DNA from: Spirochaetia bacterium
GTDB lineage: Bacteria; Spirochaetota; Spirochaetia; Treponematales; Breznakiellaceae
DNA length: 33,635 nucleotides
Assembly (NCBI GenBank): GCA_026002305.1
Contig: BOBI01000003.1
Coordinates: forward strand, 1 to 33,635
Direction: 5' to 3'
The notes under the pieces are model-generated. The model was not told where the DNA came from. It worked only from the letters and a program-made list of their open reading frames with translations, and did no database searches. The stretch's first letter is position 1, and the number at the start of each line of letters is the position of its first letter. The position numbers were made by a program, and so were the translations under genes. Below are positions 8,065 through 22,571 of the stretch, in pieces.

Positions 8065-9269
8065 AAGCCGAGGTTCTCCATTGCTTCGGTTAAGAAAAAA
8101 TCCCGAAACTCAGGCGGTTGTTCATTTGGATAATTGCCGCTTTGGTCAATTCCAATAGATTGCGCTTTATTCAAACCGTTTGTACGACTGAAAAACAAAA
8201 CCTGTGCTGATGCCTTCTTGGCTGCTTTCTTTTGCCTTTGCCGGAAGCGGTCTATAAGGTAATCGCTATGAGTTTCGATATAAAACTTTTTTTCTTGCTT
8301 TTCTATCGTTATATCAAAAAACACATCCCCTAATGCCGCCTGCGCCTTCGGATGCAGATACACTTCCGGTTGTTGTATCTCAAACACATCATCCTTGCCG
8401 GTGAAGATATTAAATAAAACTGGGAACACCTGAGAAACACCGTATCCGAGGTTGACAATATTGATAGGTATCTTATCCAAAAGAAAATTAAGACGAAAAA
8501 GTACATCATCAATGCCTGAACCATAGTCTTTTATCTCGATGTCGTTAAACAAGCCGCTTTGTTTACCAAAGTTATTAAGGCTTGTTCGTAATGATGCTCC
8601 GTTCTCGTTAAAGAGACGCCGTAAAAGATACGGAATATGCCCGCCTTCAGAAGAGACATGAGTTGCCGGTTCGTCATACGTTTTTCGCGGTTTGCTGCGG
8701 ATAGGGGCTGTAAAATCGATGCTTTGTTGGCGAGAATCAAAAACAAAAACCGGATTATTAGAAGCAATGATATTCACAAGCACAATAGGAGAAATATCTT
8801 GTTTTACGTTTTTGAGTTCATTCCACGCATGGCATGATTCAAACTCATCAAATGTGAGTGTTTTTTTATTGCTATTTTTATAGGTTATAGTCTTCTTATT
8901 TTCGGCAATATTGATATAAATTGTGTTATCACATTGAGATAAGACCGCTTTTGACAAAGATGGTTTACCACCGTCATTGACAAATTCAAACAGAAACGAG
9001 GTTTTATTTTCATTTTCAAATATATATCCTAGACGAAAGTAGCTTTTATTTGTTTTTGCCGCAGACACCAAGTCATCAAAAGAATACCCCTGCCCTTCAC
9101 TTACGCTAAAATCAAGAGCAGACCAAAACTTCTCACTAAAAATAGTTTTAAGTGCAAATAACACCGAGCTTTTACCGGTGCTGTTCTCTCCAACGAGAAA
9201 GTTTACATCGCAGATTTCGATGTATTGGTCTGTGAACCCTCTGTAGTTGTCCAAATATAATTTTTCCAT
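8061..9269 (-). CDS. AAA family ATPase (RecF/OLD-like, no nuclease seen)
   Basis: A 402-residue ABC-type ATPase. It opens with the strand MEKLYLDNYRGF and Walker A GENSTGKS (27-34). Near the C-terminus are the Walker B-like EIQQPEVYLHPKAQAALG and the switch motif ETHSDYLIDRFR. The D-loop and H-loop fit AAA_15/AAA_21-type proteins of defence loci. It ends soon after the ATPase core, so it lacks the TOPRIM module of full OLD proteins and probably relies on a partner. The start has a GGGGAG ribosome binding site. It follows a 70-residue gene by 10 bases and overlaps a 26-residue ORF downstream. Function in defence is inferred from context. Confidence 0.8.
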   Translation of the reverse strand: MEKLYLDNYRGFTDQYIEICDVNFLVGENSTGKSSVLFALKTIFSEKFWSALDFSVSEGQGYSFDDLVSAAKTNKSYFRLGYIFENENKTSFLFEFVNDGGKPSLSKAVLSQCDNTIYINIAENKKTITYKNSNKKTLTFDEFESCHAWNELKNVKQDISPIVLVNIIASNNPVFVFDSRQQSIDFTAPIRSKPRKTYDEPATHVSSEGGHIPYLLRRLFNENGASLRTSLNNFGKQSGLFNDIEIKDYGSGIDDVLFRLNFLLDKIPINIVNLGYGVSQVFPVLFNIFTGKDDVFEIQQPEVYLHPKAQAALGDVFFDITIEKQEKKFYIETHSDYLIDRFRQRQKKAAKKASAQVLFFSRTNGLNKAQSIGIDQSGNYPNEQPPEFRDFFLTEAMENLGL

Positions 9270-9279: not shown

Positions 9280-9492
9280 CTACCCTTTCAGTTCAAGTTC
9301 TCGGCTTAATTCCTCGGCAAGATAACCATCACTGCGGCAATGCATATCGGAGATGCCTTCACGGACTTCGTGATAAAGCTCAGAGTTGTAAAACAAATCA
9401 AGCGCGGTACGAAAAGCTGTGTCGTATTGGCTCGCATAGGCTTCTACGATAGATGGGTACTTTATGTGTAGAATTATCTTGTGTTCTGTCAT
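9280..9492 (-). CDS. Small protein downstream of DUF3990
   Basis: A 70-residue acidic protein beginning MTEHKIILHIKYPSIVEAYA. I do not recognise a named domain, although the first strand (HKIILHIKYPSIVEAY) suggests a compact alpha/beta fold. It overlaps the DUF3990 gene by 4 bases (ATGA). I recall genes of this type as a third member beside DUF3791/DUF3990 pairs, possibly a regulator or second antitoxin. That role is inference only. Confidence 0.65.
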   Translation of the reverse strand: MTEHKIILHIKYPSIVEAYASQYDTAFRTALDLFYNSELYHEVREGISDMHCRSDGYLAEELSRELELKG

Positions 9493-9965
9493 GTAACCTC
9501 CTCATTATTTGAATACCGTAAGTATTCATCCATTACGGCTTGAGTTCTAAGGCAGTATTGTTCGTTCGGTTTCATAAAACGCAATCTGCGTACCGCTTCT
9601 CTTTTGTTGATATAGTTACTAAGAAATAGTGTAATTGTTGGAAACACTCTATCGTCTGCGACTCCGCCTGTAACAATATCGTAATGACTATCATCTTTGC
9701 CTCTTCGGCATCTTACCACGAAATCAAACCATTCTCTTGAATATGATTCAAACCTTAAAACAGTAGCGCTATTTAGTACCGTTTCGTCAAACTCGTAAAT
9801 TGAGACAATTCCATGCTCGTATTTTTTGATAAACCGTTTAGACCAGTTTATTGACTGCTCTTTTATCGGTGTAAGATAAAAGCCATTGCCGAAGTCCGTT
9901 CGATTGCGACAGAACGACAAGTCAGGTTTTTCGATTGCGCAATAACCACCGTGATACAGGATCAT
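9489..9965 (-). CDS. DUF3990 protein, probable ADP-ribosyltransferase-fold toxin
   Basis: A 158-residue protein with the DUF3990 signature: LYHGGYCAIEKPDLSF at the start, then DFGNGFYLTPIKEQSINW. The HG and the GFYLT strand correspond to the first two conserved segments of the ADP-ribosyltransferase fold, to which DUF3990 is related. A modified cellular target has not been identified from the sequence. It is flanked by 4-base ATGA overlaps with both the DUF3791 gene and the 70-residue gene, so the three should be made in fixed ratio. A toxin or abortive-infection role is inferred from fold and location. Confidence 0.8.
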   Translation of the reverse strand: MILYHGGYCAIEKPDLSFCRNRTDFGNGFYLTPIKEQSINWSKRFIKKYEHGIVSIYEFDETVLNSATVLRFESYSREWFDFVVRCRRGKDDSHYDIVTGGVADDRVFPTITLFLSNYINKREAVRRLRFMKPNEQYCLRTQAVMDEYLRYSNNEEVT

Positions 9966-10198
9966 ATCTTAGTCCCTTTTTTTCGCATAAGTTCGATTAG
10001 TTCGCGAACGATATACTCCCGGCCTTGCGTGTGAAGCGTGCTGTAAAATTCAATCACATAATCATCAAGCACATTCAACCCCGGACAGTTCATCATTAGC
10101 TCGTAGACCTCGTTGCCTTTTAGACCGACTTCATCTGCTACACATTCCACACAGAAAATTGCAAACTCAAGTTCATCTTTTGTAATTGATTTTTTCAC
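9962..10198 (-). CDS. DUF3791 protein, probable partner of DUF3990
   Basis: A 78-residue helical protein with the DUF3791 pattern: an ELEFAIFCVECVADE helix, GNEVYELM, then FYSTLHTQGREYIVREL. Such genes usually precede DUF3990 genes, and an antitoxin or adaptor role is inferred. Three GTG codons are candidate starts at 10207, 10204 and 10198. The Shine-Dalgarno sequence GGAAGG (complement 10208-10213) directly abuts the first, so 10198 with a 9-base spacer is preferred. About 50 bases separate it from the YoeB-like toxin stop upstream. Confidence 0.8.
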   Translation of the reverse strand: MKKSITKDELEFAIFCVECVADEVGLKGNEVYELMMNCPGLNVLDDYVIEFYSTLHTQGREYIVRELIELMRKKGTKI

Positions 10199-10247
10199 CG
10201 ACACCACCCTTCCGGCAGATTCGCTTTGTTACTCATACGCCGATCCC

Positions 10248-10532
10248 TTATTCATAATGCGTCCACATACGAATAATTTTTACAGTGCCATCATACGGCA
10301 CGTCATCATTATTTACAGCATTATTCAACACCTGATATACAAGCCTGTGTTGGATATTTATTCTACGCGAATAGGTGGCAGAATATCCTTGTAGTTTCTC
10401 ATAGGGCGGAGGATTCTGTACAGGATTTTTCTGAATCACTCTAAGAAGGAATGCCGCTTTTGTTTTTAATCCGGCTTGTTCCAATTTTTGAGAATCTTTT
10501 ACTGCTTGCCTTGTAAGCAAAAGGTTATACAT
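10248..10532 (-). CDS. Txe/YoeB-like RelE-family toxin
   Basis: A 94-residue type II toxin of the RelE/YoeB superfamily, predicted to cut mRNA on the ribosome. Typical elements are visible: LTRQAVKDSQKL near the N-terminus, NPPPYEKLQG in the centre, then YSRRINIQHRLVYQV and the C-terminal KIIRMWTHYE. The Arg/His residues in RRINIQHR and the terminal HYE are in the positions of YoeB active-site residues. The ATG at 10532 lies inside the antitoxin's last codons (8-base overlap), which argues against the in-frame start 27 bases upstream. Confidence 0.88.
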   Translation of the reverse strand: MYNLLLTRQAVKDSQKLEQAGLKTKAAFLLRVIQKNPVQNPPPYEKLQGYSATYSRRINIQHRLVYQVLNNAVNNDDVPYDGTVKIIRMWTHYE

Positions 10533-10749
10533 CAGCCCACACCTTAGAGAGCGGCACACATTCAGACAAAGGTGTCGCTATGCCTTCGTTTATAGATTCC
10601 GCCATTCCGGGGATTGAGTTTAAGTAAGTTGTGTCATCCGTTTCTAAAAGCTCACGGTGTTTTTGAAACAACACAAAATCTCGCACTGCAACCAGCACTT
10701 CATCAGGCAATGTGTCGATGTCGTGTTTTACCGATTCTCGAATATTCAT
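10525..10749 (-). CDS. Antitoxin of the YoeB-like pair
   Basis: A 74-residue protein upstream of and overlapping the toxin gene, as in type II systems where the antitoxin is made first. The N-terminal half (IRESVKHDIDTLPDEVLVAV) is helical and may dimerise or bind the promoter. The C-terminal half (YLNSIPGMAESINEGI, then PLSECVPLSKVW) is the likely toxin-neutralising tail. This C-terminal pattern recurs in antitoxins of Txe/YoeB toxins. It has a very strong AGGAGG ribosome binding site that overlaps the fic stop codon. Confidence 0.82.
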   Translation of the reverse strand: MNIRESVKHDIDTLPDEVLVAVRDFVLFQKHRELLETDDTTYLNSIPGMAESINEGIATPLSECVPLSKVWADV

Positions 10750-10758
10750 AATATCCTC

Positions 10759-11364
10759 CTATATCTCCACTTTCGCTAACTCCTCAATGAGCGCCGCCAG
10801 CTTCGCTACATCGCCATCTATCGTGCCTGACATATAGCGTTCATATACATCGGCGTTATCGGGTGGGTTTAAGTTAAGCGTCAATCCGTGTTCAAGGGCA
10901 AGAACACGAATAAACTCACGCTGGGTGCGACCATTACCTTCCCTAAACGGATGCAGAAAATTAACCGCATCAAGTATTTCGGCTAGTTTTTGTGCTATAC
11001 GTTTCAAATCTGTTTTTTCCAAACTATGATAATCACCTATAAGCGTATCGATATAGTTTAAACTTGTCGCAAAAAAGTTCGTCTCAATGAACGGTTTACC
11101 GGCTTTGCTAATGTTGACTGTTCGCGGCTTCCCTGCCCATTGGTAAACATCTTGAAACAAATATTGATGAATAGCCAGAAGCGCCTTTACATCTTTTATT
11201 TTGATAGGTTTTTTTGCAAGTTCCTTTGCACGTTTTAATACAGATGCGCTTTCAAGAAACAATAAATCGTCCTGATTGGTAACGTTTGCTAAATTACGCA
11301 ATACGCCTGTTTGCGGGTCAGTGTAAGTATAATCAGGGTCGAGATATTGATACGCATTACGCAT
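10759..11364 (-). CDS. fic: Fic-domain AMP transferase (FicT-type toxin)
   Basis: A 201-residue class I Fic protein that transfers AMP, or another nucleotide part, from a nucleotide to a hydroxyl on a target; DNA gyrase and topoisomerase IV are known targets of FicT toxins. The complete catalytic loop HPFREGNGRT is at residues 138-147, with H138 as the general base. The upstream beta-hairpin region (TVNISKAGKPFIETNF, about 82-97) is the usual target-docking flap. The gene starts inside the last codons of the VbhA-like antitoxin gene (8-base overlap). No internal inhibitory helix is evident, which fits inhibition by a separate partner. Confidence 0.93.
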   Translation of the reverse strand: MRNAYQYLDPDYTYTDPQTGVLRNLANVTNQDDLLFLESASVLKRAKELAKKPIKIKDVKALLAIHQYLFQDVYQWAGKPRTVNISKAGKPFIETNFFATSLNYIDTLIGDYHSLEKTDLKRIAQKLAEILDAVNFLHPFREGNGRTQREFIRVLALEHGLTLNLNPPDNADVYERYMSGTIDGDVAKLAALIEELAKVEI

Positions 11365-11581
11365 ACGCTTTTTCCTTCGTAAGCTGAGCTAATTGCTGAA
11401 ACGTAATTTTGTTACATACATAATCGCGTATAATCGAGACGCTTTTTTCAGTCGGCTCAAATCCTTCAAACATATTTGAACCCAGAGCATCCGCCGTACT
11501 GTCCAGCGTCTCTATATCCGGAAATACCACGCCCATAATGGTCAAACGAGTTCTGTCTACTGTTACCGGTCTATATGCCAT
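11357..11581 (-). CDS. VbhA-like antitoxin of Fic
   Basis: A 74-residue inhibitor of the adjacent Fic toxin. The inhibitory helix motif (S/T)xxxE(G/N) is present as SNMFEG (S35 to G40); its Glu blocks the ATP gamma-phosphate site of the Fic enzyme in trans. The tail FEPTEKSVSIIRDYVCNKIT is the typical VbhA helical part. It is the first gene of the long minus-strand defence series. Its ATG at 11581 follows AAGGGATAAGAT, and a promoter is visible just upstream. Confidence 0.9.
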   Translation of the reverse strand: MAYRPVTVDRTRLTIMGVVFPDIETLDSTADALGSNMFEGFEPTEKSVSIIRDYVCNKITFQQLAQLTKEKAYA

Positions 11582-11603
11582 ATCTTATCCCTTTATCAAA
11601 GTT

Positions 11604-11632
11604 ATTCTACACTATTTTGTATGTTTCCGCAA
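11604..11632 (-). promoter_or_regulatory. Candidate sigma-70 promoter of the defence island
   Basis: On the minus strand, a -35 TTGCGG (complement 11627-11632) and a -10 TAGAAT (complement 11604-11609, five of six consensus bases) are separated by exactly 17 bases. Transcription would begin about 15 bases upstream of the VbhA-like ATG. The -35 is weak. No comparably good promoter was noticed inside the downstream series. Confidence 0.45.
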
Positions 11633-11684
11633 GGTATACATATATTATTTGTCAAGCCAAAGTGAAAATATCCCCTTTTTGAAA

Positions 11685-11807
11685 TTAAGCCGCATTATTA
11701 ACATGGTCTTTATATTCCTGTTTATCTAACTCCTTAACGAGGATTTGATAATACCCGCAATCGTGCCGAATCACAAAATCATTTGTTACTGTTCGTGTGT
11801 ATTCAAA
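11685..11807 (-). pseudogene. Second coding remnant, possibly a transposase C-terminus
   Basis: A 40-residue open stretch without start codon: FEYTRTVTNDFVIRHDCGYY and then QILVKELDKQEYKDHV. The pattern resembles C-terminal segments of ISNCY-type transposases (RTV..DF.I...YYQ), which would match the family of the element at the left edge, but the assignment is weak. It overlaps the end of the IS5-like fragment in another frame, so the junction between the two lies near 11805. Confidence 0.3.
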
Positions 11808-12075
11808 ATGAAACCGGATATTACTTTTGCGTCATAACCCGCATCCATAAGACTGTAACAAGAACGGACTTTTTCTTCGAGCATCTTTTCCATGGGAATC
11901 GCAAGCCGGTTGTCATGGACATTCGCTCCGGTAACAACCGCGTTAAGCGGAAATCCGCTGTCGCTTACATCAAGATGCAATTTATAACCTTTCCAGAAAT
12001 AGACGTTACCATGGCTGTTCTTTTTGCATCCGTACGCGCAGACAGATCAACGAACCTGCCAAAGGAGCAGAATTT
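11786..12075 (-). pseudogene. IS5/IS1182-type DDE transposase fragment with frameshift
   Basis: The minus strand reads GRFVDLSARTDAK in one frame and then KNSHGNVYFWKGYKLHLDV, SDSGFPLNAVVTGANVHD and YSLMDAGYDAK in the next. These are conserved pieces around the catalytic Asp residues of IS4/IS5-superfamily transposases. The shift occurs at an A-run near 12021-12025; one extra A would restore the frame. Both ends of the gene are missing. It is inactive debris of an old insertion. Confidence 0.8.
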
Positions 12076-12083
12076 CAACAGCA

Positions 12084-12112
12084 TTGTCATAGTTTTAATT
12101 TACCTTTAAACT
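12084..12112 (+). promoter_or_regulatory. Possible promoter of the LuxC/LuxE operon
   Basis: TTGTCA (12084-12089, five of six consensus bases) and TAAACT (12107-12112, four of six) are spaced by 17 bases. Predicted transcription start is almost at the ATG of the MFS gene (12120), and no Shine-Dalgarno sequence precedes that ATG, so a leaderless mRNA is possible. Weak evidence; an upstream promoter in the IS debris is an alternative. Confidence 0.25.
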
Positions 12113-12119
12113 AGAACTA

Positions 12120-13346
12120 ATGAACTCCACCAGCGTTTTTGCGGTTCCGGATTTTAGAAACCTTTATGCCGCACGTTTTATTTCCACAGTAGGCGCAAGA
12201 TTTTTCTCTCTGGCCATATCATGGTGGGTGTTGGATAGCGGCTTTAAAAACGCATCCTCGCTTTTGGGGATTATTATGGCGGCTACGGCGGTTGGCACTT
12301 TTGGGTTTGCCCCTTTTATGGGCGCGCTGGCTGACAGTTACAGCAAAAAGACAACAATGATTGCGGCGCTTGCCGGAAATGTTATTGTTGTAGGAATTAC
12401 AATTTTGCTTTTTGCGCTGGGTGTGTTTAATTCGTTTCCGCTTTTGTTCGCGTTATTCGCAATACTGATTTACGCCTTTGAGCCGCTGGCTGAAACTTCA
12501 ATGCAGGGCAGCTTGAATTACATTGTACCGGCCAGCCTCTTACCCGCTGCGGTTTCGGTAGTGTCCGGCATCACGTCTTTTTCCCAAGCTATAGGGGCGG
12601 CCTTTGCCGGCGCCGCAATCGTTGTGTTAGGTGTTGCGGGCGCTTTTTCGTTTGACGCCCTCTGTTATATTGTTTCTATATTTTTTGCACTCCGCCTGAC
12701 TACAGCGCTGCCTGCCGCCCCTAACAATGATAAGAAAACATCGTTTTGGGAAAACCTTGCAGAAGGTTTTAAATATGTAAAAGATGATAAGGCGTTGTTA
12801 GCATTGCTTGTTTTTTTTGCGGCGATCAACCTGTTTGTTTCCCCGATTGTTTTGGCGCTGCCGATAATTGCAAAAACAATTTACAACGGCACCGCGCTTC
12901 TTATGTCAGGTTACGAAATTTCTCTAGGCGGCGGCGTTGCCCTGATTAGCACCATAGCGGGATTTATAAAAAAGAAGTACAACAGATACAGTGCGGGGTT
13001 TTTTGCCATTATTTTCTGCGGCGCATCTTTAGTTGGGCTGGCTGTCTTTCATAATCTGATAGTGTCTTTTGTCTTTGTTTTTTTGTTCGGCTGTGGAATG
13101 GGCTTTGTAAATGTTTCGATGATGACGCTTTTTCAATCTTACGTACCGCCTTTTATTCAAGGCCGTTTCTTTTCCATACTAAATACTGTTGCGGGGGCGG
13201 TTATTCCGTTGAGTTATGCGATTGTAGGTTTTGTAAGCAACAAAATAAATATTATGGATCTAATGTTTATAAATGGCTGCGTTTTAGCGGCATCTTCTTT
13301 TGTGATGCTTTGCATAAAAAAAATTGATGGAGAATATGTTTTATGA
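12120..13346 (+). CDS. MFS transporter (MFS_3/EntS-like exporter)
   Basis: A 408-residue membrane protein with about 12 hydrophobic segments, the normal MFS size. The N-terminal half has RNLYAARFISTVGARFFSLA and the loop 2-3 motif GALADSYSKKTT, which corresponds to the conserved MFS motif A. Members of this branch export small molecules such as siderophores. It is the first gene of the five-gene operon and its stop overlaps the next start by 4 bases (ATGA), so it probably exports or imports the pathway's substrate or product. The ATG at 12120 has no clear ribosome binding site; an in-frame stop lies 24 bases upstream, so the start cannot be further away. Confidence 0.85.
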   Translation: MNSTSVFAVPDFRNLYAARFISTVGARFFSLAISWWVLDSGFKNASSLLGIIMAATAVGTFGFAPFMGALADSYSKKTTMIAALAGNVIVVGITILLFALGVFNSFPLLFALFAILIYAFEPLAETSMQGSLNYIVPASLLPAAVSVVSGITSFSQAIGAAFAGAAIVVLGVAGAFSFDALCYIVSIFFALRLTTALPAAPNNDKKTSFWENLAEGFKYVKDDKALLALLVFFAAINLFVSPIVLALPIIAKTIYNGTALLMSGYEISLGGGVALISTIAGFIKKKYNRYSAGFFAIIFCGASLVGLAVFHNLIVSFVFVFLFGCGMGFVNVSMMTLFQSYVPPFIQGRFFSILNTVAGAVIPLSYAIVGFVSNKINIMDLMFINGCVLAASSFVMLCIKKIDGEYVL

Positions 13347-14608
13347 TAAAACTATACAGCGAAGAATATATAGTCCGCTACGCGAGACAACATTCGCCTT
13401 TTTATCGTGCTTTATACAAAGATGTACAAAGCGATCGCCCTGTTGTCCAGGATGTTCCTTTAATAAACCAAAGTGATTTTTGGGCGGCAAATACTAATGG
13501 CAGCAACAATACTGTTCTTACAGGCGCCATAGAAAACGGTGTCGTATTTAAAAGCGGAGGCAGTACAAGCGCGCCGAAATTTTCCGTATTTGCACATGAT
13601 GAATACGAAACCTTTTGCCATGTCAGCGGGCTTGCGTTTATGTACAATGGTGCGCAAAGCGGCGACAGAATAGCAAACCTTTTTTACGGCGGTCTTTTGT
13701 ATACATCATTTTTATATGTACACGATTTTGTGCGATACTGCCCTATGCAGCTTATTGAATATCCTATAATGGGATCAACGCCAATACCGGAAATGCTTTA
13801 TCTAATAGAGCAGCATAAATGTAATGTTATAAACGGCGTGCCTACAACAATTATTTCTCTGTTTGAACACGCAAAGAAAACCGGCGCCGATATATCTTTT
13901 GTAAATAAAATATATTTTGGCGGGGAAACTTTTTTTCAAGACCAGCGTGATTTTATACATTCGGTTAATAGCAAAGTTGAAATACGTTCCGCCTCTTACT
14001 CACTTGTAGACGGCGGTCTTGTAGGTTTTGGTGACAGCTCTTGCGGTTTTAACGAGCACCGCGCCTTTGATTATGTTTGCCGGTTAGAAATTGTAGACAG
14101 CGATACAGGGGAAGTTATCAATGAAACAAACAAAACAGGCAACCTTGTTGTAACATCTTTGTATAGACTGTTGCAGCCGATGATACGCTATCCTCTTGGT
14201 GACCGTGGAATGTGGCTGGAACCACAAAATGTCAGGGACCGCAAATTCCTGCTGCAGGGGCGCAGCGAAGAGGGTGCGCGTGTTGGTGTTGTATCTTTTT
14301 ACTATGATGATTTACATGCGGTTTTACAGTCTGTAAGCGGTGTGCATATTCTAAACTACCAGCTTATAATAACACATTTTGATGGTAAGGATGCCCTTAC
14401 CGTACGTGTTGCAACTAACGAAACAGCACTTGCAAACAATCACAAAAAAGAGTTCCTTTTAAGCTTGTATAAAGAGCGCGTTTTTTTTAAGGAAGAATAC
14501 GAGAAAGGTCATATTCACGAACCTGTCTTTGAATTTATTCCGCCTGATAAACTAGAATACAACCCGCGTACAGGAAAAATTAAACGTATAATAGACCGGA
14601 GGTTATAA
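13343..14608 (+). CDS. PaaK/F390-synthetase-like adenylate-forming enzyme
   Basis: A 421-residue member of the phenylacetate-CoA ligase/coenzyme F390 synthetase branch of adenylate-forming enzymes. The phosphate-binding loop is SGGSTSAPK (71-79). Later motifs are NVINGVPTTIISLF, KIYFGGETFF, the A5-like SASYSLVDGGLVGFG, and RYPLGDRGMWLE, whose D is the ribose-binding Asp. The end PRTGKIKRIIDRRL holds the A10-like lysine of the small C-terminal lid. It should activate a carboxylic acid as acyl-AMP; substrate and acceptor cannot be read from the sequence. It overlaps both neighbours (ATGA upstream, TAATG downstream). Confidence 0.85.
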   Translation: MIKLYSEEYIVRYARQHSPFYRALYKDVQSDRPVVQDVPLINQSDFWAANTNGSNNTVLTGAIENGVVFKSGGSTSAPKFSVFAHDEYETFCHVSGLAFMYNGAQSGDRIANLFYGGLLYTSFLYVHDFVRYCPMQLIEYPIMGSTPIPEMLYLIEQHKCNVINGVPTTIISLFEHAKKTGADISFVNKIYFGGETFFQDQRDFIHSVNSKVEIRSASYSLVDGGLVGFGDSSCGFNEHRAFDYVCRLEIVDSDTGEVINETNKTGNLVVTSLYRLLQPMIRYPLGDRGMWLEPQNVRDRKFLLQGRSEEGARVGVVSFYYDDLHAVLQSVSGVHILNYQLIITHFDGKDALTVRVATNETALANNHKKEFLLSLYKERVFFKEEYEKGHIHEPVFEFIPPDKLEYNPRTGKIKRIIDRRL

Positions 14609-15747
14609 TGATGTACAATAATATAAGCACTGTAGAAAAATTATGCGCTGTTAAAGACGCTTACAAACACGACGGCGAAACTGATAAAATGTTTGTACAG
14701 GCAATGAAAGAGATTGTGATTTTTCATAAAGAGCATAGTGCTTTTTATTCACGCCTTTTAAAAAAAGACAAATTTGATATAAACACACTGTGTACCGTAG
14801 AAGATTGTGCCGCAATTCCTTATGTCTATGCCGACTTTTTTAAAACACACATCGTGAAAAGTGTTGGCGATGAACAAATTACAGATCATTATACATCTTC
14901 GGGTACTACAGGACAAAAAAGCCAAATGTTCTTTGATGAACGTACTTTAGGCAGTGCTATTAAAATGATTGATTTTGAAGTTGATTATCTTGGTTTTAAT
15001 TCACCTGATATTAAATCAAATTACATAATGTATTCGTATCAGATTCCGGCAGACTCAAAATTGGGAACGGCAAATACCGACAAACGCATGACAAAATATT
15101 CGCCTCCTGCAGAAATTGAATACGCGCTAAAACAAAACGGCAGAGGCGGCTACGACTTTGATGTATTCGGGATAATAAATGCTTTACAGCGTTATGCCGC
15201 GCAGGAATTGCCGGTGCGTATTTTAGGCTTCCCGTCTTTTTTTTATTTTACATTGCAGCAGATGCGCGACCTTAAAATAAAGCCTGTCAAACTAAATCCT
15301 CTTTCGGCAACATTATTCGGCGGCGGCTGGAAAGGGGCCGCAGGAAAAGAAATATCAAAAAAAGAATTATACGAATTGGGCGAAGAGATGTTGGGCATCC
15401 CGAATAATAGATTTTGTGACGGCTTTGGCTCTGTTGAGCATTGCATACCGTATATGGAATGCAGCAATCATCATTTTCATGTACCTGCCTGGTCGCGTGT
15501 TTTTATACGGGATGTCCGCACACTTGATGTACTGCCATTCGGCAGCAGCGGCTTTTTACAATTTGTATCCCCCTATATAACATCCGCCCCCGCACACAGT
15601 GTACTCATGGGGGATTTAGCTGTACTTCAACCCGCATCAAAATGCGGCTGCGGCATAAAAACGCCATACTTTGAAATATTGGGACGTGCCGGAACAAGTA
15701 AAAACAAAAGCTGCGCTATCGCCGCCGCAGAATTATTAAAACGGTAA
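14608..15747 (+). CDS. LuxE-family acyl-protein synthetase
   Basis: A 379-residue homologue of LuxE, which activates a fatty acid as acyl-AMP, holds it on a Cys, and hands it to the reductase LuxC. Phosphate loop TSSGTTGQKS is at 96-105. The LuxE-specific stretch FGGGWKGAAGKEISKKELY, then GFGSVEHCIPYMEC, HFHVPAWSRVFIRD, LPFGSSGFLQF and the final ILGRAG are all present. The C-terminal KSCAIAAAELLK contains a Cys where LuxE carries its acyl-accepting Cys. Start ATG at 14608 follows GGAGG with good spacing. Length matches LuxE. No luxAB is nearby, so light production is unlikely. Confidence 0.9.
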   Translation: MMYNNISTVEKLCAVKDAYKHDGETDKMFVQAMKEIVIFHKEHSAFYSRLLKKDKFDINTLCTVEDCAAIPYVYADFFKTHIVKSVGDEQITDHYTSSGTTGQKSQMFFDERTLGSAIKMIDFEVDYLGFNSPDIKSNYIMYSYQIPADSKLGTANTDKRMTKYSPPAEIEYALKQNGRGGYDFDVFGIINALQRYAAQELPVRILGFPSFFYFTLQQMRDLKIKPVKLNPLSATLFGGGWKGAAGKEISKKELYELGEEMLGIPNNRFCDGFGSVEHCIPYMECSNHHFHVPAWSRVFIRDVRTLDVLPFGSSGFLQFVSPYITSAPAHSVLMGDLAVLQPASKCGCGIKTPYFEILGRAGTSKNKSCAIAAAELLKR

Positions 15748-15779
15748 TTACCACAGATGTTTTATAGGAGTTTAATGAA

Positions 15780-18260
15780 ATGAACAAACTACATTTAGTT
15801 GAGGGGATCCTTACAAACGATTTCAATATTGAAAAGATATTCAGCGGTATTCATAGAGATATTACAACACAATTGGAGACGCAAACTTTACTTGATTCAG
15901 GCGATGCTCTTTGCGGTATATTAAAAAACGGCGATGCGGATTTAGAAAGGACGCTTGTCGAAAATAATACCGATCCAAAAACCGCCAAAGAAACTGTCAT
16001 GGGACTAAGCGGTGTGTTTTCAAAAGAGTATATGTTAAACAAACTTGAACACGAGCTTGGCAGCATAACGCCATTTGTTCCAAGACGTTTTAATTTGGAA
16101 AATAATATTTTGGAATGTTACAAACCATTAGGAGTTTTATGTCATGTTGCCGCCGGAAACTCGCCGGGTATGGGCGCCCTTAGTGTGCTGGAAGGTCTTT
16201 TAAGCGGCAATATCAACATTGTAAAATTAAGCAGCAAGGAAAATGGATTCTCAGCAATTCTATTACACAAACTAATCCTCTGCGACAAAACAGGCATCCT
16301 TTCTAAATATATTTACGCTTTGGATATTTCATCAAAAGAACAGGATCTGTTAAAAAGGTTATTTGATTTTTCTACAGCGGTTGTCGCTTGGGGCGGTACG
16401 GACGCGATAGACAGCGTCCGAAACGCGACATCAACACCTGTAATTGCATGGGGGCATCATTTAAGTTTTGCGTATTTAACAGCAAAAGGCGTAACGGATA
16501 AAACACTGGAAAATCTTGCCCGTGATATTTGCGAAGAAAATCAACAAGCGTGCGCAAGCCCGCAGTGCCTTTTCTACGAAGGCAGCTTTGAGGAACTTCC
16601 CGCATTGGCGCTTCGTTTAAAAGATGCACTTGCAAAAATATCGCCGCTCTATCCCCTGCCTGTTCTGGATGTACACGAGGCCGCGCAAATAACACAGCAA
16701 AATATAATGGTACGGCTTGGAAGCTGCATGGACGAAGGTGATATTATCGAGGCGGATGATAAAAGTTTTCGCATTTATATAAACAGAGAACCTGCTATTA
16801 CGCCATCCCCGCTTTTTCGTACGATTTGGTTAAAGCCTATGCAAAGACATGAGCTTGTTAAATATATAATGCCTATGTCACGCTTTATGCAGACCGTATC
16901 GTTGGGATGTGCCGTAGATGAAGTATACGATCTGTCGGAAATACTAATGAAATGCGGGGCAACCAGAATTGTATCGTGCGGGAATGTGTTTGCATCCTAC
17001 GCGGGAGAACCGCACGACGGTGTGTTCGCGTTATCAAGATATTGCAAACGTATCTCCATACAAATTGACTCCTTAAAAAAGATTGCAACATTCGACGCAC
17101 TCTCACCATGGACAAACAACAATCAAAACGGCCTGCCTATCATGGACAAAGATGCTTTTATGGCAACCGCAGGCGATGATGAAAAATCAAAACTCTATGT
17201 AAAAAGCGGAGGATCAAGCGGAAAGACAATTCTTTCATCATACTCATACCGCGACTATCATTTTGAGATGAGTGCTCTTGCGGAAAGCCTTGTACTTATC
17301 GGATTAGAGCCAAAGACAGATCGTGTTATTAACTTATTAAGTGCGGGGCATCTTTACGGCGGCTTTATAAGTTACAGTTGTATTCTTGAACTTGCAAACG
17401 CAAAACATTTCCCTATGGCAGAGGTAACACCAAGTGAGGATGCGGCAAACGCGATTATCGAACACAAAATAAATGTAATTATGGGTATGCCTTCCTACAT
17501 ATTAAAACTTTTCCGCGAAAACGAAAAAGCACTAGCCGCTTATAGAGGCGTGCAAAAAATATTCTTCGGCGGCGAGTTTTTAACGGACGAAAACAAAGGG
17601 TGGTTAAACAATACTTTCGGCGTACAAATTTTCGCGTCAATGGGATACGGCAGCAACGATGTAGGGCCTATGGGTTATGCCTGCTCGCATTGTTCAGACG
17701 GTGAACATCATCTTTTAAAATCTATTATGGATATGGAAATTGTCAAAATAGACAGCGATGAACCTGTCGAAAAAGGTGAAACAGGAAGGATATTAGTAAG
17801 CCCCAAATACAGGGAAGGACGCAAAGTATCACGCTACGAAATAGGCGATTTGGGCTGCTGGATCGACGGCCAATGTGAATGTGGCAGCACATCGCCGCGC
17901 TTCCGCCTTATGGGGCGTTACGGTGATATTATCCGTATTGCCGGCTGCTTTTTAGATTACAGAAGGATAAGCGGTATAATTACGTCAAAATTAGAAAATA
18001 CACAAGTGCAGCTTGTTGCGGAAAATATCACGGGCTCCAACAAAGAGCGCCTTATAGTACGCACAGGAAATGTCCTGTTCGGTAATGATGACCTTGTCCA
18101 AACATTAAACGACAACGATCCGGCAATCGCGGAAGCGTTATCATTCGGCTACATCGAAATAATTTTGCAAAAAACAGAAGAGTCAAAAATGGAGTACGCT
18201 CAAACAAGCGGAAAACTAAAACACATAATAGATAAAAGGATAATTAAATCACCCTCATAA
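15780..18260 (+). CDS. LuxC acyl reductase fused to PaaK-like adenylating domain
   Basis: An 826-residue two-domain protein. Residues 1 to about 435 are a LuxC-type, aldehyde-dehydrogenase-fold, NADPH-dependent acyl reductase: GVLCHVAAGNSPGMGALSV near 118-136, VVAWGGTDAI at 201-210, and the nucleophile region ENQQACASPQC with probable catalytic C258. Residues about 440-826 form an adenylating domain like the gene two upstream: phosphate loop SGGSSGKT (476-483), KIFFGGEFLT, ASMGYGSNDVGPMGY and YEIGDLGCW, ending TSGKLKHIIDKR. Free LuxC has about 480 residues, so the fusion is real rather than a read-through artefact; both halves have intact motifs. AGGAG at 15766-15770 supports the start. It probably makes an acyl aldehyde and then activates a second acid or transfers a product. 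Confidence 0.88.
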   Translation: MNKLHLVEGILTNDFNIEKIFSGIHRDITTQLETQTLLDSGDALCGILKNGDADLERTLVENNTDPKTAKETVMGLSGVFSKEYMLNKLEHELGSITPFVPRRFNLENNILECYKPLGVLCHVAAGNSPGMGALSVLEGLLSGNINIVKLSSKENGFSAILLHKLILCDKTGILSKYIYALDISSKEQDLLKRLFDFSTAVVAWGGTDAIDSVRNATSTPVIAWGHHLSFAYLTAKGVTDKTLENLARDICEENQQACASPQCLFYEGSFEELPALALRLKDALAKISPLYPLPVLDVHEAAQITQQNIMVRLGSCMDEGDIIEADDKSFRIYINREPAITPSPLFRTIWLKPMQRHELVKYIMPMSRFMQTVSLGCAVDEVYDLSEILMKCGATRIVSCGNVFASYAGEPHDGVFALSRYCKRISIQIDSLKKIATFDALSPWTNNNQNGLPIMDKDAFMATAGDDEKSKLYVKSGGSSGKTILSSYSYRDYHFEMSALAESLVLIGLEPKTDRVINLLSAGHLYGGFISYSCILELANAKHFPMAEVTPSEDAANAIIEHKINVIMGMPSYILKLFRENEKALAAYRGVQKIFFGGEFLTDENKGWLNNTFGVQIFASMGYGSNDVGPMGYACSHCSDGEHHLLKSIMDMEIVKIDSDEPVEKGETGRILVSPKYREGRKVSRYEIGDLGCWIDGQCECGSTSPRFRLMGRYGDIIRIAGCFLDYRRISGIITSKLENTQVQLVAENITGSNKERLIVRTGNVLFGNDDLVQTLNDNDPAIAEALSFGYIEIILQKTEESKMEYAQTSGKLKHIIDKRIIKSPS

Positions 18261-18281
18261 GGATGTGCGAAGACTAAATCT

Positions 18282-19838
18282 ATGAAAATAAAACTTATTC
18301 TGGAAAGCAAAATAGAATCTATCGAACCTTCTCTTTCACTTGTAGAGACACTATGTAAGCAAAAAGGTTTCTCGCAAAAAGAAAACAACGATCTGCGCCT
18401 TGCATTGGAAGAAGTTCTTTCTAATATTGTTGATTATTCTTTTGATCCGCATGATACCGATACGGATATTGCGATAACAATAAATGAAATTTCAGGCGGT
18501 ATGGAAATTCGTATACACCAAAACGGTATACCTTTCACCCTTGATGCCGCTCCGCATTACAATCCTCAAAAAATAAAAACCGTAGATGACGCGCTGCAAG
18601 AAAAAGGATTGGGGCTTTTTCTTGCTTCCAAAAAGGTGGATAAATTAGAGTGCAGGTATTTAGGACAAAAGGGAAATGAAAGTCTGATAGTAAAGTATCA
18701 AAGTGATCCTAAGGTAATAGGACACAAACTTTCGGAAAATAAAATGCTCGCCGAAATACAAAAGTTAACGGAAGACGATATTAAAATTGTTTTGTTCCGC
18801 CCCGCCGACGCGCTTAATGTTGCGCGCTGCCTATACGCTACTTATGGCTACACATATCTTAAAGCCGCTCTCTATAATCCTGAATACCTAAAAGAATACG
18901 CGCAAAGTGAGAATACAATCATCGTTACGGCAGTGTCGGAAAAAATTACAACACCATCTGATATACATTCCGAAAAATCTTCCTTTGTAGCCGGTGTTGC
19001 AATAGGCAGCGAAGATTCCGCTTTTGCCGGTATTATGGAAATCGGTTCCCTTGTAGTTTCATGGCAGCTGCGCGGTATGCACATATCCGACAAATTATGC
19101 ATCGATCTGCTTGACAGAATTATTCAGGCAGGTAAAAACGGCGTATACACCGAATGTGTAACACTGCACACCGCAAGCCAGAAAGTAAGCCTGCGGCTGG
19201 GATTGTTTCCTTGTTGTTTCTATTTGAATTTTATCCCAAACGAGGTACACTTCAAAAACTTTGATGTGCAGAAATCAAAGCGTCAAACCTTTGTTGTTTA
19301 TTACAAATCTATAAAGAGCAATAACGCGCAAATATGTTTTGCCGAAAATACCGGCGCCCTTTCAGATGATCCGCAAGGTACCGCTCAACGTAAATTGCAG
19401 GATAAAATATTGCGCATATACAAACGCTTACATATTACGCCAAATATTGTTTTCAAAAAGAATTGTTTATCAGAAAAAAGCAACATAGACGTAAGCAGAA
19501 ATGAAACCTTTAGAATTTGTTTAATGTTTGCCAAAAGCATATCGTCTGACTTTGCGGATTCGATAAAAAAAATTATGGCAACCCGGTCTTTCTCTATTGT
19601 TGAAACTTGGATGTTATACTTAAATTTATCCGATGCCGCATGGTTCTATGCCTACAGTGATTTAAAAAAACTGGGGTTTGTATGGAGCGGAATTCTACCC
19701 GGCAGTGCAAACGGGGACTTTCTGGTTATGCAATATGTAGAAAATGTAGTATTTGAAGAAATCAATATGGCCTGCCCAGAGGACGACAGTTGGATGCTGG
19801 AAAGCGTTAAAGAAGAATATGAGAACAGGGTGTATTAA
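18282..19838 (+). CDS. RsbW-like ATPase fused to GNAT-like region
   Basis: A 518-residue protein. Residues 1-145 match the anti-sigma factor/serine kinase (HATPase_c_2) fold: N-box ALEEVLSNIVDYSF (41-54) and a G2 loop EKGLGLFLASKKVD (107-120). The G1 position, normally DxGxPF, reads QNGIPF (80-85), so the Asp that contacts adenine is replaced by Gln. The middle region resembles a GNAT acetyltransferase: GIMEIGSLVVSWQLRGMHIS is the acetyl-CoA loop area and TLHTASQKVSLRLGL the following strand. The rest (about 350-518) resembles a second, degenerate copy. Last gene of the operon; a regulatory or N-acyl-transfer role is inferred. Confidence 0.75.
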   Translation: MKIKLILESKIESIEPSLSLVETLCKQKGFSQKENNDLRLALEEVLSNIVDYSFDPHDTDTDIAITINEISGGMEIRIHQNGIPFTLDAAPHYNPQKIKTVDDALQEKGLGLFLASKKVDKLECRYLGQKGNESLIVKYQSDPKVIGHKLSENKMLAEIQKLTEDDIKIVLFRPADALNVARCLYATYGYTYLKAALYNPEYLKEYAQSENTIIVTAVSEKITTPSDIHSEKSSFVAGVAIGSEDSAFAGIMEIGSLVVSWQLRGMHISDKLCIDLLDRIIQAGKNGVYTECVTLHTASQKVSLRLGLFPCCFYLNFIPNEVHFKNFDVQKSKRQTFVVYYKSIKSNNAQICFAENTGALSDDPQGTAQRKLQDKILRIYKRLHITPNIVFKKNCLSEKSNIDVSRNETFRICLMFAKSISSDFADSIKKIMATRSFSIVETWMLYLNLSDAAWFYAYSDLKKLGFVWSGILPGSANGDFLVMQYVENVVFEEINMACPEDDSWMLESVKEEYENRVY

Positions 19839-21898
19839 AAATACCCCAGTGAATCGCGGCCGGAGCGTTCCAGAAGGTAGACTTCGGCTTCTATGTTTTT
19901 AAAACTGCCTGCGTCTTGTCCGCTTGTAAAACTTAAAATATACGTGCCGCTGGGTACGGAGTTAAGTTTTTGTAAATCCTGAACAATGCCCTGCCGTCTG
20001 TAAAGCGGAAAAGCGGCGCCGCCTGTTACGTCGCAAAGGTATTTTATGTCGTCGCCCGCGCGCGAACCGCCTACGATGATCGCGTTAAAAACTATGCCGT
20101 TATTTGCCAGATAGGAAGCTAGGTCGTTAAGACTGTACTGTTCAAACGCAAGCGGGCCCAGGTCGCCAGTTGTTACGAAAAGCACGGCGCGCTTTTTGGA
20201 AAGCGGCAAAAGATCTCCTGCGGCAAGGCGCAATCCCAGATCGAAACGCCACCTGTCCGTGTATGCGACGGCGCCTGTCCGCGCCGCCTGCGCAAGGGTG
20301 GCGGGGTTGTTGGTGTTAAAGCGCTCGTGCACAGGATCTGCCCCCGCCGACACCATCGAGGCAATGTTGCCCCGTAAACCGGCCTTTATGTCGCGGATTG
20401 CCGCCTCAAACTCGTCTTTTAAACGGGAAGCCGCAGGGGATCGCTCAAAAAGTACCGAAACATCAACAGTTTCCGACTTGCTGCCCGCTCCCAGAAATAC
20501 TTGATTTTGCACGGGGCGGCCACGATCACTTAAAATAAAGTTGCTTTGATCCAGCCCCACAACGGGACGGCGGCGGCTGTCCTGTACATTTACTTCCACC
20601 GTAACAACAGGAAAACCCGATGAAACAACACGGTCTATTTGTACAAAAAGACCGGAAGAAATCTCGTCTAACGGGGCAAGCACGGTAACTTCGTTGGAGC
20701 TAAAATCGGCGGCAAGCAGGTTATTGTTGATGTCCAACTGTGCGCCGGTAAGCCGCACACGCGAATTGCCGGGGGCCGTAAGCTCATTAATTATCGTGGT
20801 TTGCAGGTCTACAAGCAAAATTCGCTTGGTATCTGTAACCAAAAGCTGATTTTCGCCATATAGTTTAATACTTTCAGGCGCCGTAAGCCCCTGTGCCGTT
20901 AAAATTCCTAAATACATTCCGTTTTTATCAAACATGTAGATTGATTTTGCGACACTACAGGCGACATAAATGATCCCGTTAATTGCCGCAATACCCGTTG
21001 GGGCCTTTAACCCTTGAAAATCCTGTGTGCGGGATGCGAAATTGTGAATAAAAACGCCATCGGGACTGAATTTTGATACACGGCGGTTCCCGAATTCCGT
21101 AACATAGATATAACCTTCTTCATCAACAGCCAATGACGAGGGGCCGGAAAGCTGCCCATCTCCTATGCCTTTGCCGCCAAAACTGGAAAGCCACGCCCCC
21201 TCCGGCGAAAGGACGCTTACCCGCCCTCCGCGAAATTCCGAAAGGTAGAGTCTGCCGTCCAAACCCCTAACAAGGGCGTAGGGGCGGTCGAAACCGGTAA
21301 GCGGGCCGCGTTCCCTCTGGCGGACAATGCCGTTTACATCCAACCGGACAATTTCGTTACTGCCATAGCAGACAATCCACGCGGAGCCATCGTCAAGGGG
21401 CAGCACCTCTGTCGGGGTTTTAAAGCGCGGGACGCCGTCGTCCGTTACCCCGCTGAAATGGCCTATTTCCACAAAAGGTCGTTGGCCGGACAGGCTTGAA
21501 AAAAGGCTCATGCGGGCGCGGACGCTTTCTATGCGGCTGCCGATTAACACCGATTCGGGAGCGGCGCCGTAGGCTTCCGTTGCCGCCTGCCATTGACGGA
21601 GGGCTATGTTTTCCATGCCGGAGCGGTAGTAGGCGCGTCCCAGCCAGTCTAAAATTAAAGGCTCACCGGGTTTGTAGAAAAGCGCCTGTTCCAGCGTAAG
21701 TATTGATTCGTTAAAGGCAAAACGGTTGTAAGCCTCAACAGCTATGCGGAACGATTCGGCGGCGTTAAGTGAATTTTGGTCGCTGCCAAAGGAACCGGCG
21801 CCTGCACCGTTACCGCCCGCCTGCCCGCCATCTTGCGCTATGGAGAAATGAGTAAGCGTCAACATCAAAAGGACGCAAAGAAAAAACTTATGAGGCAT
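19835..21898 (-). CDS. Secreted TPR/NHL-repeat protein with VWA-like C-terminus
   Basis: A 687-residue exported protein. A signal peptide ends near FSIAQ (residue 22). Residues about 45-115 hold TPR helices (AYNRFAFNESILTLEQALFY). Residues about 140-410 contain NHL-type beta-propeller repeats, seen as recurring SLAVDEEGYIYVTEFGNRRV and LVRGLDGRLYLSEFRGGRV units. Residues about 470-680 look like a von Willebrand A fold (VDVSVLFERSPAASRL), but the D-x-S-x-S metal site is altered to V-L-F-E-R-S. Spirochaetes have many such periplasmic or surface proteins. The start lies inside the TPR gene's end (11-base overlap), and its 3' end overlaps the convergent RsbW-like gene by 4 bases. Confidence 0.8.
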   Translation of the reverse strand: MPHKFFLCVLLMLTLTHFSIAQDGGQAGGNGAGAGSFGSDQNSLNAAESFRIAVEAYNRFAFNESILTLEQALFYKPGEPLILDWLGRAYYRSGMENIALRQWQAATEAYGAAPESVLIGSRIESVRARMSLFSSLSGQRPFVEIGHFSGVTDDGVPRFKTPTEVLPLDDGSAWIVCYGSNEIVRLDVNGIVRQRERGPLTGFDRPYALVRGLDGRLYLSEFRGGRVSVLSPEGAWLSSFGGKGIGDGQLSGPSSLAVDEEGYIYVTEFGNRRVSKFSPDGVFIHNFASRTQDFQGLKAPTGIAAINGIIYVACSVAKSIYMFDKNGMYLGILTAQGLTAPESIKLYGENQLLVTDTKRILLVDLQTTIINELTAPGNSRVRLTGAQLDINNNLLAADFSSNEVTVLAPLDEISSGLFVQIDRVVSSGFPVVTVEVNVQDSRRRPVVGLDQSNFILSDRGRPVQNQVFLGAGSKSETVDVSVLFERSPAASRLKDEFEAAIRDIKAGLRGNIASMVSAGADPVHERFNTNNPATLAQAARTGAVAYTDRWRFDLGLRLAAGDLLPLSKKRAVLFVTTGDLGPLAFEQYSLNDLASYLANNGIVFNAIIVGGSRAGDDIKYLCDVTGGAAFPLYRRQGIVQDLQKLNSVPSGTYILSFTSGQDAGSFKNIEAEVYLLERSGRDSLGYF

Positions 21899-22571
21899 CG
21901 CCTACAACAGCCTTCATGTGACCGGCGATTTCTTTTTGGCGCGGGGCAATATCAAGGGCGCGGCGCAGATAATTACGGGCATCGCTAACTTCGCCGGATT
22001 TAAAATATGCCCAGCCAAGCGAATCAAGGTAGGCGGCGTTCTGCGGCTTTTTCTCGACGGCTTTTTTACAAAGCTCAAGGCCGCGCGGCAGGTCGATATT
22101 TGCCTCTACCAGAAGGAAGCCAAGGCCGTTAAGCGCTGTTGTGTTTGCGCTGTCAATTTGCAGCGCCTTTTCGTAGTAATCAACCGCCTGCGCGTGTTGT
22201 TCCTGCACCAAAGCGGAGTAGGCAAGCAGGGTATAGATTTGCGGCGATGAAAAGCCGTTTTTTACAAGGCGTTCAAGCTCGAACTGCGCCATTTTAGGAC
22301 GGCGGGTAATCATGTAAATATAAGCAAGGGTCAGCCGGCATTGGCATATACGCAGGGACGAAGTATTACCGGTTACCACCTGTTCCAAATAAAGAAGCGC
22401 GTCGTTGTAGCGCTCCATTTTTGTGTAACAAAGGCCAAGATAATAGGCCAATTCCATTTTTTCTTCTTCTTTAAACTCTTCGCTTTCCACCATAAGAAAG
22501 GTTTGTAAAGCGATGTCCCACCGCTTCATTTTATAATAGCGTACCGCTTCTTCAAAAGTATCGGATGCCAT
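21888..22571 (-). CDS. Tetratricopeptide repeat protein
   Basis: A 227-residue protein built almost wholly of TPR helix pairs, for example ALLYLEQVVTGN, AVDYYEKALQIDSANTTALN and ARNYLRRALDIAPRQKEIAG. No signal peptide or membrane segment is seen, so it is likely cytoplasmic and a scaffold for protein contacts. It precedes and overlaps the secreted NHL protein gene, suggesting a shared function such as envelope assembly. The ATG at 22571 has AAGGAG at good spacing and a clear upstream -10. Confidence 0.82.
   Translation of the reverse strand: MASDTFEEAVRYYKMKRWDIALQTFLMVESEEFKEEEKMELAYYLGLCYTKMERYNDALLYLEQVVTGNTSSLRICQCRLTLAYIYMITRRPKMAQFELERLVKNGFSSPQIYTLLAYSALVQEQHAQAVDYYEKALQIDSANTTALNGLGFLLVEANIDLPRGLELCKKAVEKKPQNAAYLDSLGWAYFKSGEVSDARNYLRRALDIAPRQKEIAGHMKAVVGDAS

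What the first reader, a model, noticed from the sequence alone, without database searches (positions are those of the whole stretch)
12120..19838. LuxC/LuxE operon without luciferase, with extra adenylating enzymes, exporter and RsbW-like fusion
Seen: five tightly spaced genes coding for an MFS transporter, a PaaK-like ligase, LuxE, LuxC fused to a second PaaK-like domain, and an RsbW-GNAT-like fusion. Known: LuxE and LuxC together reduce fatty acids to aldehydes, and PaaK-like enzymes activate carboxylic acids. Inference: two or three acids are activated in one pathway, one is reduced to an aldehyde, and the product is exported. This would be an uncharacterised secreted lipid, aldehyde-derived or aryl-acyl metabolite. 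Absence of luxAB makes bioluminescence an unlikely purpose.
Basis: partly seen in the sequence, partly recalled or inferred. Interest (0 to 1): 0.85.

Follow-up and report, generated by a model that had tools for sequence, protein, structure and literature searches.

The report
Mobile acid-to-aldehyde gene cassette, no luciferase
A spirochaete carries a five-gene cassette that probably turns organic acids into an aldehyde-derived small molecule and exports it; much the same uncharacterised gene set recurs in unrelated bacteria, which suggests an undescribed metabolite rather than light production.

Summary
In detail: five intact, same-strand, tightly packed genes at 12120-19838 encode an MFS exporter, a PaaK-like ligase, LuxE, a LuxC-PaaK fusion and an RsbW-GNAT fusion. 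Key residues are kept (LuxE Cys369, LuxC Cys258, both ligase C-terminal lysines), dN/dS is 0.067-0.134, and no luciferase-family gene was found in the (64.5% complete) genome. The set is not a local oddity: LuxE + LuxC-PaaK + separate PaaK + GNAT (+ MFS) recurs in two sister Spirochaetia contigs, three Streptomyces-type plasmids and two Salmonella plasmids, and the fusion and the ligase share contigs in Bacteroidales. Fourfold sites of the operon agree at 503/876 between two Spirochaetia, against 18-34% in four control genes, so the cassette moves horizontally. Best reading: a self-contained cassette that reduces one carboxylic acid to an aldehyde, activates a second (perhaps aryl) acid, acyl-transfers and exports. 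Substrates and product are unknown. The RsbW part may link it to partner-switch regulation: sister loci have a sensor SpoIIE phosphatase upstream that the window lacks, as it lacks their promoter; a decayed transposase lies there. New variant of a known kind (luciferase-free acid reductases such as GriC/GriD).

The parts
12120..13346 (+). MFS exporter (408 aa); first residues and upstream region differ from the sister loci
   Evidence: Pfam MFS_1 9.5e-32; TIGR00900 7.9e-42, below its cut-off; 86% identical to L001
13343..14608 (+). separate PaaK-like adenylate-forming ligase (421 aa)
   Evidence: [ST]GG[ST] loop, RYPxGD and the C-terminal GK lysine kept in 14 of 14 aligned sequences, window included
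14608..15747 (+). LuxE-type acyl-protein synthetase (379 aa); SSGTTG loop, C-terminal Cys369
   Evidence: PF04443 2.3e-31; aligns to 7xc6 LuxE with its C-terminal Cys
15780..18260 (+). LuxC reductase (about 1-428, Cys258) fused to a PaaK-like adenylation domain (about 431-820)
   Evidence: PF05893 4.6e-71 and PF00501 9.3e-10; AlphaFold2 mean pLDDT 82.6; matches 7xc6_A, 4r1m, 2y4n; 14 of 15 checked residues invariant in 19 sequences
18282..19838 (+). RsbW-like GHKL domain (about 1-141) fused to a GNAT domain (about 165-350) and a further C-terminal alpha/beta region (about 365-515)
11640..12080 (-). decayed transposase-like remnant directly upstream (stops in every frame), where the sister loci have a sensor phosphatase gene, promoter and ribosome-binding site
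   Evidence: six-frame reading, family assigned by eye only; comparison with L001/L002
12084..12112 (+). weak promoter-like match TTGTCA-17-TAAACT (9 of 12), possible replacement promoter
   Evidence: 30 such sites in 11300-20200 against a mean of 22.4 in shuffles, so not evidence of function

Best explanation
The five genes form a self-contained, horizontally moved small-molecule cassette. Step 1 (inferred from homology and intact residues): LuxE adenylates a carboxylic acid, holds it as a thioester on Cys369 and passes it to Cys258 of LuxC, which reduces it to the aldehyde. Step 2 (inferred): the PaaK domain fused to LuxC and the separate PaaK-like ligase adenylate one or two further acids, more likely aryl than long-chain. 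Step 3 (inferred, weakest): the GNAT domain acyl-transfers, joining the pieces or capping an amine. Step 4 (inferred): the MFS protein exports the product. The RsbW-like domain is a regulatory add-on seen in the Spirochaetia/Bacteroidales branch; in two sister loci a SpoIIE phosphatase (with dCache and HAMP in the one whose gene is complete) is encoded just upstream. Shown by calls: the gene set, its recurrence, the motifs, the folds and the horizontal movement. Not shown: the chemistry.
For: Recurring set: L001 and L002 (the same five genes in the same order); Streptomyces NBC_00158 L026 (PaaK, MFS, GNAT, LuxE, LuxC-PaaK); S. cattleyicolor L024 and Streptomyces BHT-5-2 L028 (same order, tblastn); Salmonella plasmids L025 and L027 (LuxE, LuxC-PaaK, PaaK, GNAT, with an MdfA-like MFS fragment in front). 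LuxE of these five loci is 45-49% identical to the window's (L027 by tblastn, 45%), against 27% and 23% for Rhizobium and Priestia LuxE. 14 longest-contig lengths are shared between the best 120 LuxC-PaaK and best 120 PaaK hits, about 0.3 expected (13 without the window). Catalytic residues. Constraint: dN/dS 0.067-0.134. Aryl-acid lead: solved relatives of the fused domain include ClxA bound to 3-amino-4-hydroxybenzoate, NatL2 with salicylate and phenylacetate ligases. Sensor phosphatase upstream in both sister loci.
Against: No substrate or product evidence. The best solved match of the fused PaaK domain (BT_0428, 4r1m) is itself only a putative acyl-CoA ligase. The GNAT loop that binds CoA pyrophosphate (canonical R/QxxGxG/A, recalled) reads R[GN][ML][HRK][IL][SAG] in the 11 aligned members, so transferase activity of the fused form is doubtful. 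The RsbW G1-box Asp (adenine contact, recalled) is Gln in the window and Glu in the other 10. The window copy lacks the clear promoter and Shine-Dalgarno-like site of L001/L002, so it may be silent. Profile matches between the fused GNAT and the Streptomyces and Salmonella GNATs are moderate (hhalign E 2e-4 and 6e-5, probabilities 46% and 64%), so 'the same GNAT' is probable, not proven.
Confidence: 0.5

Rival explanations
1. Surface-glycan or flagellin decoration: LuxE/LuxC make an acyl or aldehyde group for a sugar, as suggested for Aeromonas polar flagellin islands.
For: luxE and luxC sit in Aeromonas group II flagellin glycosylation islands with an ACP, a 3-oxoacyl-ACP reductase and an AMP-dependent synthetase (PMC7874193, passages); a Rhizobium plasmid has LuxE and LuxC near an aminotransferase and a glycosyltransferase. 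A PGA_cap gene lies 2.8 kb downstream in the window.
Against: No glycosyltransferase, ACP or ketoacyl enzyme among the proteins tested in and around the cassette in the window and L001, or among annotated neighbours in L025-L027 (not every flanking ORF was tested). The Rhizobium LuxE is only 27% identical; the Aeromonas LuxE was not compared.
Confidence: 0.12
2. Detoxification: the cassette reduces toxic aryl or short acids to aldehydes or conjugates them with the GNAT and pumps them out.
For: Exporter and GNAT in the set; PaaK-like ligases; plasmid-borne in places. GNAT fold matches include phosphinothricin acetyltransferases, a fold resemblance only.
Against: Three activating domains and an energy-costly reduction to a reactive aldehyde are an unlikely way to detoxify (argument, not a call); no aldehyde-consuming enzyme was recognised in the cassette.
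Confidence: 0.15
3. Fatty-aldehyde supply as in lux, for a fatty alcohol, wax or hydrocarbon.
For: LuxE and LuxC match the Photobacterium fatty acid reductase complex 7xc6.
Against: The NCBIfam fatty-acid LuxE and LuxC equivalog cut-offs are missed by far (79.5 of 550 and 89 of 750 bits); the two PaaK-like domains and the GNAT stay unexplained.
Confidence: 0.15
4. Decaying passenger: the window copy is a non-expressed remnant after loss of its promoter to an insertion element.
For: Decayed transposase-like remnant upstream; no SpoIIE gene, no TTGACA-17-TATAGT promoter and no GGAG site where L001/L002 have them.
Against: All five frames intact with dN/dS 0.067-0.134, though that may mostly reflect history before the insertion.
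Confidence: 0.2

Closest known systems
GriC/GriD carboxylic acid reductase of grixazone biosynthesis (Streptomyces griseus)
   Same: An AMP-binding activator plus a reductase turn 3-amino-4-hydroxybenzoate into its aldehyde without luciferase (as described in passages of PMC10179220; the original 2007 paper is not held)
   Different: Sequences of GriC/GriD were not compared; I know of no LuxC-PaaK fusion, GNAT or RsbW there (recalled)
LuxC-LuxE fatty acid reductase of luminous bacteria (PDB 7xc6)
   Same: LuxE and LuxC homology with both cysteines aligned
   Different: No luciferase gene found in the genome; LuxC carries an extra adenylation domain; extra PaaK, GNAT, MFS
PaaK-like aryl-acid ligases ClxA, NatL2, AjiA1
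   Same: Fold of residues 431-820; aryl acids named as ligands in the 9s45 and 6tm4 titles
   Different: Here fused to LuxC; only about 16-21% identity in the structural alignments
LuxE/LuxC pair in a YcaO-like + DUF692/MNIO cluster, S. europaeiscabiei plasmid (L063)
   Same: LuxE 42% identical with the same Cys motif, LuxC next to it, no luciferase among annotated neighbours
   Different: LuxC there has no PaaK domain (457 aa); a peptide-modifying context
RsbU-RsbW-RsbV partner switch
   Same: GHKL kinase fold with N-box Glu and Asn; SpoIIE phosphatase beside the sister operons
   Different: RsbW fused to a GNAT; no STAS gene in the operon; altered G1-box residue

Membership tests
Bacterial bioluminescence (lux) operon | LuxA/LuxB luciferase present | tested here: not met
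   No PF00296 match in G000 (assembly 64.5% complete); none among annotated neighbours in L025-L027
Bacterial bioluminescence (lux) operon | LuxC and LuxE homologs with acyl-carrying cysteines | tested here: met
   Cys258 and Cys369 align with the 7xc6 cysteines; conserved in relatives
Two-part carboxylic acid reductase in specialised metabolism (GriC/GriD type) | adenylating protein plus reductase, clustered, no luciferase | tested here: met
   LuxE and LuxC-PaaK adjacent; no PF00296 match
Two-part carboxylic acid reductase in specialised metabolism (GriC/GriD type) | ATP- and NADPH-dependent reduction of an acid to an aldehyde | not testable with these tools
   needs an enzyme assay
Two-part carboxylic acid reductase in specialised metabolism (GriC/GriD type) | sequence homology to GriC and GriD themselves | not tested
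   their sequences were not obtained; paper not held
PaaK-like adenylate-forming ligases | adenylation fold with intact phosphate loop, GD, GR and C-terminal Lys motifs | tested here: met
   fused domain: residues, fold; separate ligase: motifs, its fold was not predicted
PaaK-like adenylate-forming ligases | aryl-acid and CoA specificity | not testable with these tools
   no substrate evidence; relatives' ligands are only a lead
RsbW/SpoIIAB switch kinases | GHKL fold with N-box Glu/Asn and G2 box | tested here: met
RsbW/SpoIIAB switch kinases | Asp of the G1 box (DxG; adenine contact, recalled) | tested here: not met
   Gln in the window, Glu in the other 10 of 11
RsbW/SpoIIAB switch kinases | cognate STAS and SpoIIE partners nearby | tested here: inconclusive
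   SpoIIE beside the L001 and L002 operons, not seen beside the window's; a separate phosphatase-RsbW-STAS set lies on G000 C46
Active GNAT acyltransferase | R/QxxGxG/A CoA-binding loop (recalled motif) | tested here: not met
   R[GN][ML][HRK][IL][SAG] in 11 of 11
Flagellin/O-glycan LuxC-LuxE islands | glycosyltransferases and ACP in the cluster | tested here: not met
   none among the 23 window proteins scanned with Pfam

The most novel reading that the evidence does not exclude
A cross-phylum, horizontally spreading cassette makes an undescribed exported aldehyde-derived aryl/acyl metabolite, using an acid reductase in which LuxC carries its own adenylation domain; in Spirochaetia and Bacteroidales its acyltransferase has been wired into a sensor-driven partner switch, so that metabolite output follows an environmental signal.
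Probability: 0.3. Interest if true: 0.78.

Novelty: new variant of a known kind. Interest (0 to 1): 0.6.

Why it matters
If right, it names a compact and widespread biosynthetic cassette whose genes carry labels such as 'bioluminescence', 'acyl-CoA reductase' or 'phenylacetate-CoA ligase' in annotated records, found in Spirochaetia, Streptomyces and Salmonella plasmids and, by shared contigs, Bacteroidales. Because Streptomyces strains carry it, the product could be sought by ordinary deletion and mass spectrometry. It would also give a natural LuxC-adenylation fusion to test as a one-chain acid reductase.

Tried and rejected
Bioluminescence: rejected, no luciferase-family match. Phage cargo: the viral-contig scan gave 30 pattern matches and no confirmed relative; phages gave 2 records with partial matches only. 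No near match of the Salmonella set in E. coli genomes. RsbW-GNAT fusion on plasmids: no match. Anti-phage defence role: 0 of 5 operon proteins match PADLOC. RNA features: no Rfam match at gathering cut-offs and no tRNA in the window. A search of 58 relatives with the fusion rang in 39, but every listed match outside G000 covers only the PaaK part at 22-29% identity. Treponema-order genome G389 was first taken for another LuxC-PaaK; tblastn shows a LuxE-LuxC fusion instead. In one search the row 'Trep59' used wrong coordinates and is discarded. A 345-aa ORF after the C46 switch genes was tested as a GNAT and is TsaD. BLASTP of the fusion protein against the Salmonella and Streptomyces GNATs was near chance (E 0.013 and 0.017); only profiles linked them, moderately. 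Literature: ten searches of open-access PMC texts (two of them about the organism, and 97 about RsbW) listed no title that I recognised as describing this gene set; I saw listings only, except passages of PMC7874193, PMC10179220 and PMC11429834. Where the listings were capped, papers further down were not seen. Contexts of the Bacteroidales, Azorhizobium and Bacteriovorax relatives could not be opened; co-occurrence there rests on shared contig lengths.
Full report
What is there. The window encodes five intact genes on the + strand from 12120 to 19838 with overlaps of 4 and 1 nt and gaps of 32 and 21 nt. They are an MFS protein, a PaaK-like ligase, LuxE, LuxC fused to a PaaK-like domain, and an RsbW-like domain fused to a GNAT.

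Intactness. The LuxE C-terminal cysteine (Cys369) and the LuxC cysteine (Cys258, in QQACASPQ) align with cysteines of the Photobacterium LuxC-LuxE complex 7xc6; that these carry the acyl group is recalled knowledge. In 19 LuxC-PaaK proteins 14 of 15 residues checked are invariant and the fifteenth (Asp716) is kept in 18. The separate PaaK keeps its phosphate loop, RYPxGD and C-terminal GK lysine in 14 of 14 aligned sequences, itself included. The predicted structure of the fusion (mean pLDDT 82.6) gives a LuxC fold over about 1-428 and a PaaK fold over about 431-820. dN/dS between the window and L001 or L002 is 0.067-0.134 for the five genes.

Who else has it. A scan of the species genome collection with six peptide patterns, which reaches close relatives only, gave 2 loci: Spirochaetia MS499-42 (L001) and MS499-28 (L002), with the same five genes in order. 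Among 147 relatives searched with LuxE, 3 match: the window's own genome, G455 (89%; its contig is that of L001) and a distant one at 27%. Of 392 Spirochaetota genomes searched with the LuxC family, 51 match; only G389 besides G000 scores over 105 bits, and its protein is a LuxE-LuxC fusion. In the protein collection the fusion gives 378 proteins at E <= 0.001, best 120 listed; the closest with named hosts besides the Spirochaetia are Bacteroidales at 57-63%, then about 35-43% in Azorhizobium, Pseudochelatococcus, Bacteriovorax and unnamed metagenomes. The RsbW-GNAT protein gives 12: itself, 10 close relatives and one weak match. In a tree of 28 fusions the Spirochaetia and Bacteroidales rows form one supported group (100/100) on a long branch.

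The recurring gene set. Of 80 plasmid records with a tblastn match to the fusion, 6 cover at least 80% of it. I opened 5 of these 6 (the sixth is a second record of the same S. cattleyicolor strain). All 5 have LuxE just before the fusion, a separate PaaK and a GNAT (in L027 the GNAT gene lies in two pieces). The three Streptomyces-type loci have an MFS match; the two Salmonella loci have a 121-aa protein, tested in L025, matching the start of MdfA-family MFS proteins. The best 120 hits for the fusion and for the separate PaaK share 14 longest-contig lengths against about 0.3 expected. So LuxE, LuxC-PaaK, PaaK, a GNAT and an MFS protein go together in at least three phyla. No other biosynthetic gene common to the annotated loci was seen. 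The equivalence of the GNATs rests on moderate profile matches.

Horizontal movement. Between the window genome and L001/G455, fourfold-degenerate sites agree at 503 of 876 positions summed over the five operon genes, but at 58 of 206 in lepA, 186 of 541 in the DUF2229 gene, 44 of 138 in the aminotransferase gene and 23 of 129 in tsaD. I infer that the operon moved after these lineages split. No significance test was run, and four control genes are few.

Regulation. In L001 a dCache-HAMP-SpoIIE phosphatase gene ends 64 nt before the MFS gene, and a second GNAT protein is encoded before it that matches the GNAT and C-terminal parts of the fusion (hhalign 1.5e-14). L002, cut by its contig end, has the end of the same phosphatase (93% identical over 135 residues). 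Between phosphatase and MFS both sisters have TTGACA-17-TATAGT and a GGAG site (read by eye). In the window a decayed transposase-like remnant takes this place. The genome has a separate phosphatase-RsbW-STAS set on contig C46. The RsbW domain keeps the N-box Glu and Asn but its G1-box Asp is Gln; the other 10 members have Glu. The GNAT CoA loop is atypical in 11 of 11.

Mechanism. Best supported: an acid-to-aldehyde reductase (LuxE, LuxC) with two further acid-activating domains, an acyltransferase-like protein and an exporter. Reduction is inferred from homology; the aryl preference is a lead from solved relatives ClxA, NatL2 and phenylacetate ligases, behind the unassigned BT_0428; acyl transfer and export are inferences. 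Closest known principle: GriC/GriD of grixazone (PMC10179220, passages). LuxE and LuxC also occur in Aeromonas flagellin islands (PMC7874193, passages) and here in a YcaO-like + DUF692 cluster, so the pair looks like a general reduction tool.

Verdict. New variant of a known kind, interest 0.6.

Noticed in passing
window 74-9269: Defence-like island on the - strand: piece of a type III restriction subunit, PDC-S02/YhcG nuclease, type III methyltransferase, AAA ATPase with low GC (31.5%), SNF2-type helicase, AAA_15 ATPase.
   Followed up: partly
window 9489-11364: A DUF3990 protein and a Fic protein (best NCBIfam model VbhT, below its cut-off) lie between the defence-like island and the operon.
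   Followed up: no
L063 4025-12483: S. europaeiscabiei plasmid: YcaO-like protein (weak SagB/SagD matches), DUF692/MNIO protein, LuxE and LuxC close together, a possible peptide-aldehyde cluster; the NCBIfam matches are below cut-offs.
   Followed up: partly
L064 10022-12423: Chloroflexota plasmid with a bare LuxE-LuxC pair (LuxE 39% identical to the window's); a heliorhodopsin gene lies 3 kb further on.
   Followed up: no
L059 8680-11163: G389 (same order) encodes LuxE and LuxC fused in one 827-aa protein.
   Followed up: no
L001 11938-14961: 1007-aa ORF overlapping the end of the RsbW-GNAT gene on the same strand; no Pfam family, no tblastn match in the window or L002.
   Followed up: no
window 19835-22571: Convergent pair after the operon: a protein with NHL/ScyF-like and VWA-like matches, and a TPR protein.
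   Followed up: no
window 25133-26938 and L001 16741-18459: lepA lies about 5 kb downstream of the operon in both genomes but in opposite orientation, although synonymous sites suggest that the operon itself was exchanged.
   Followed up: no
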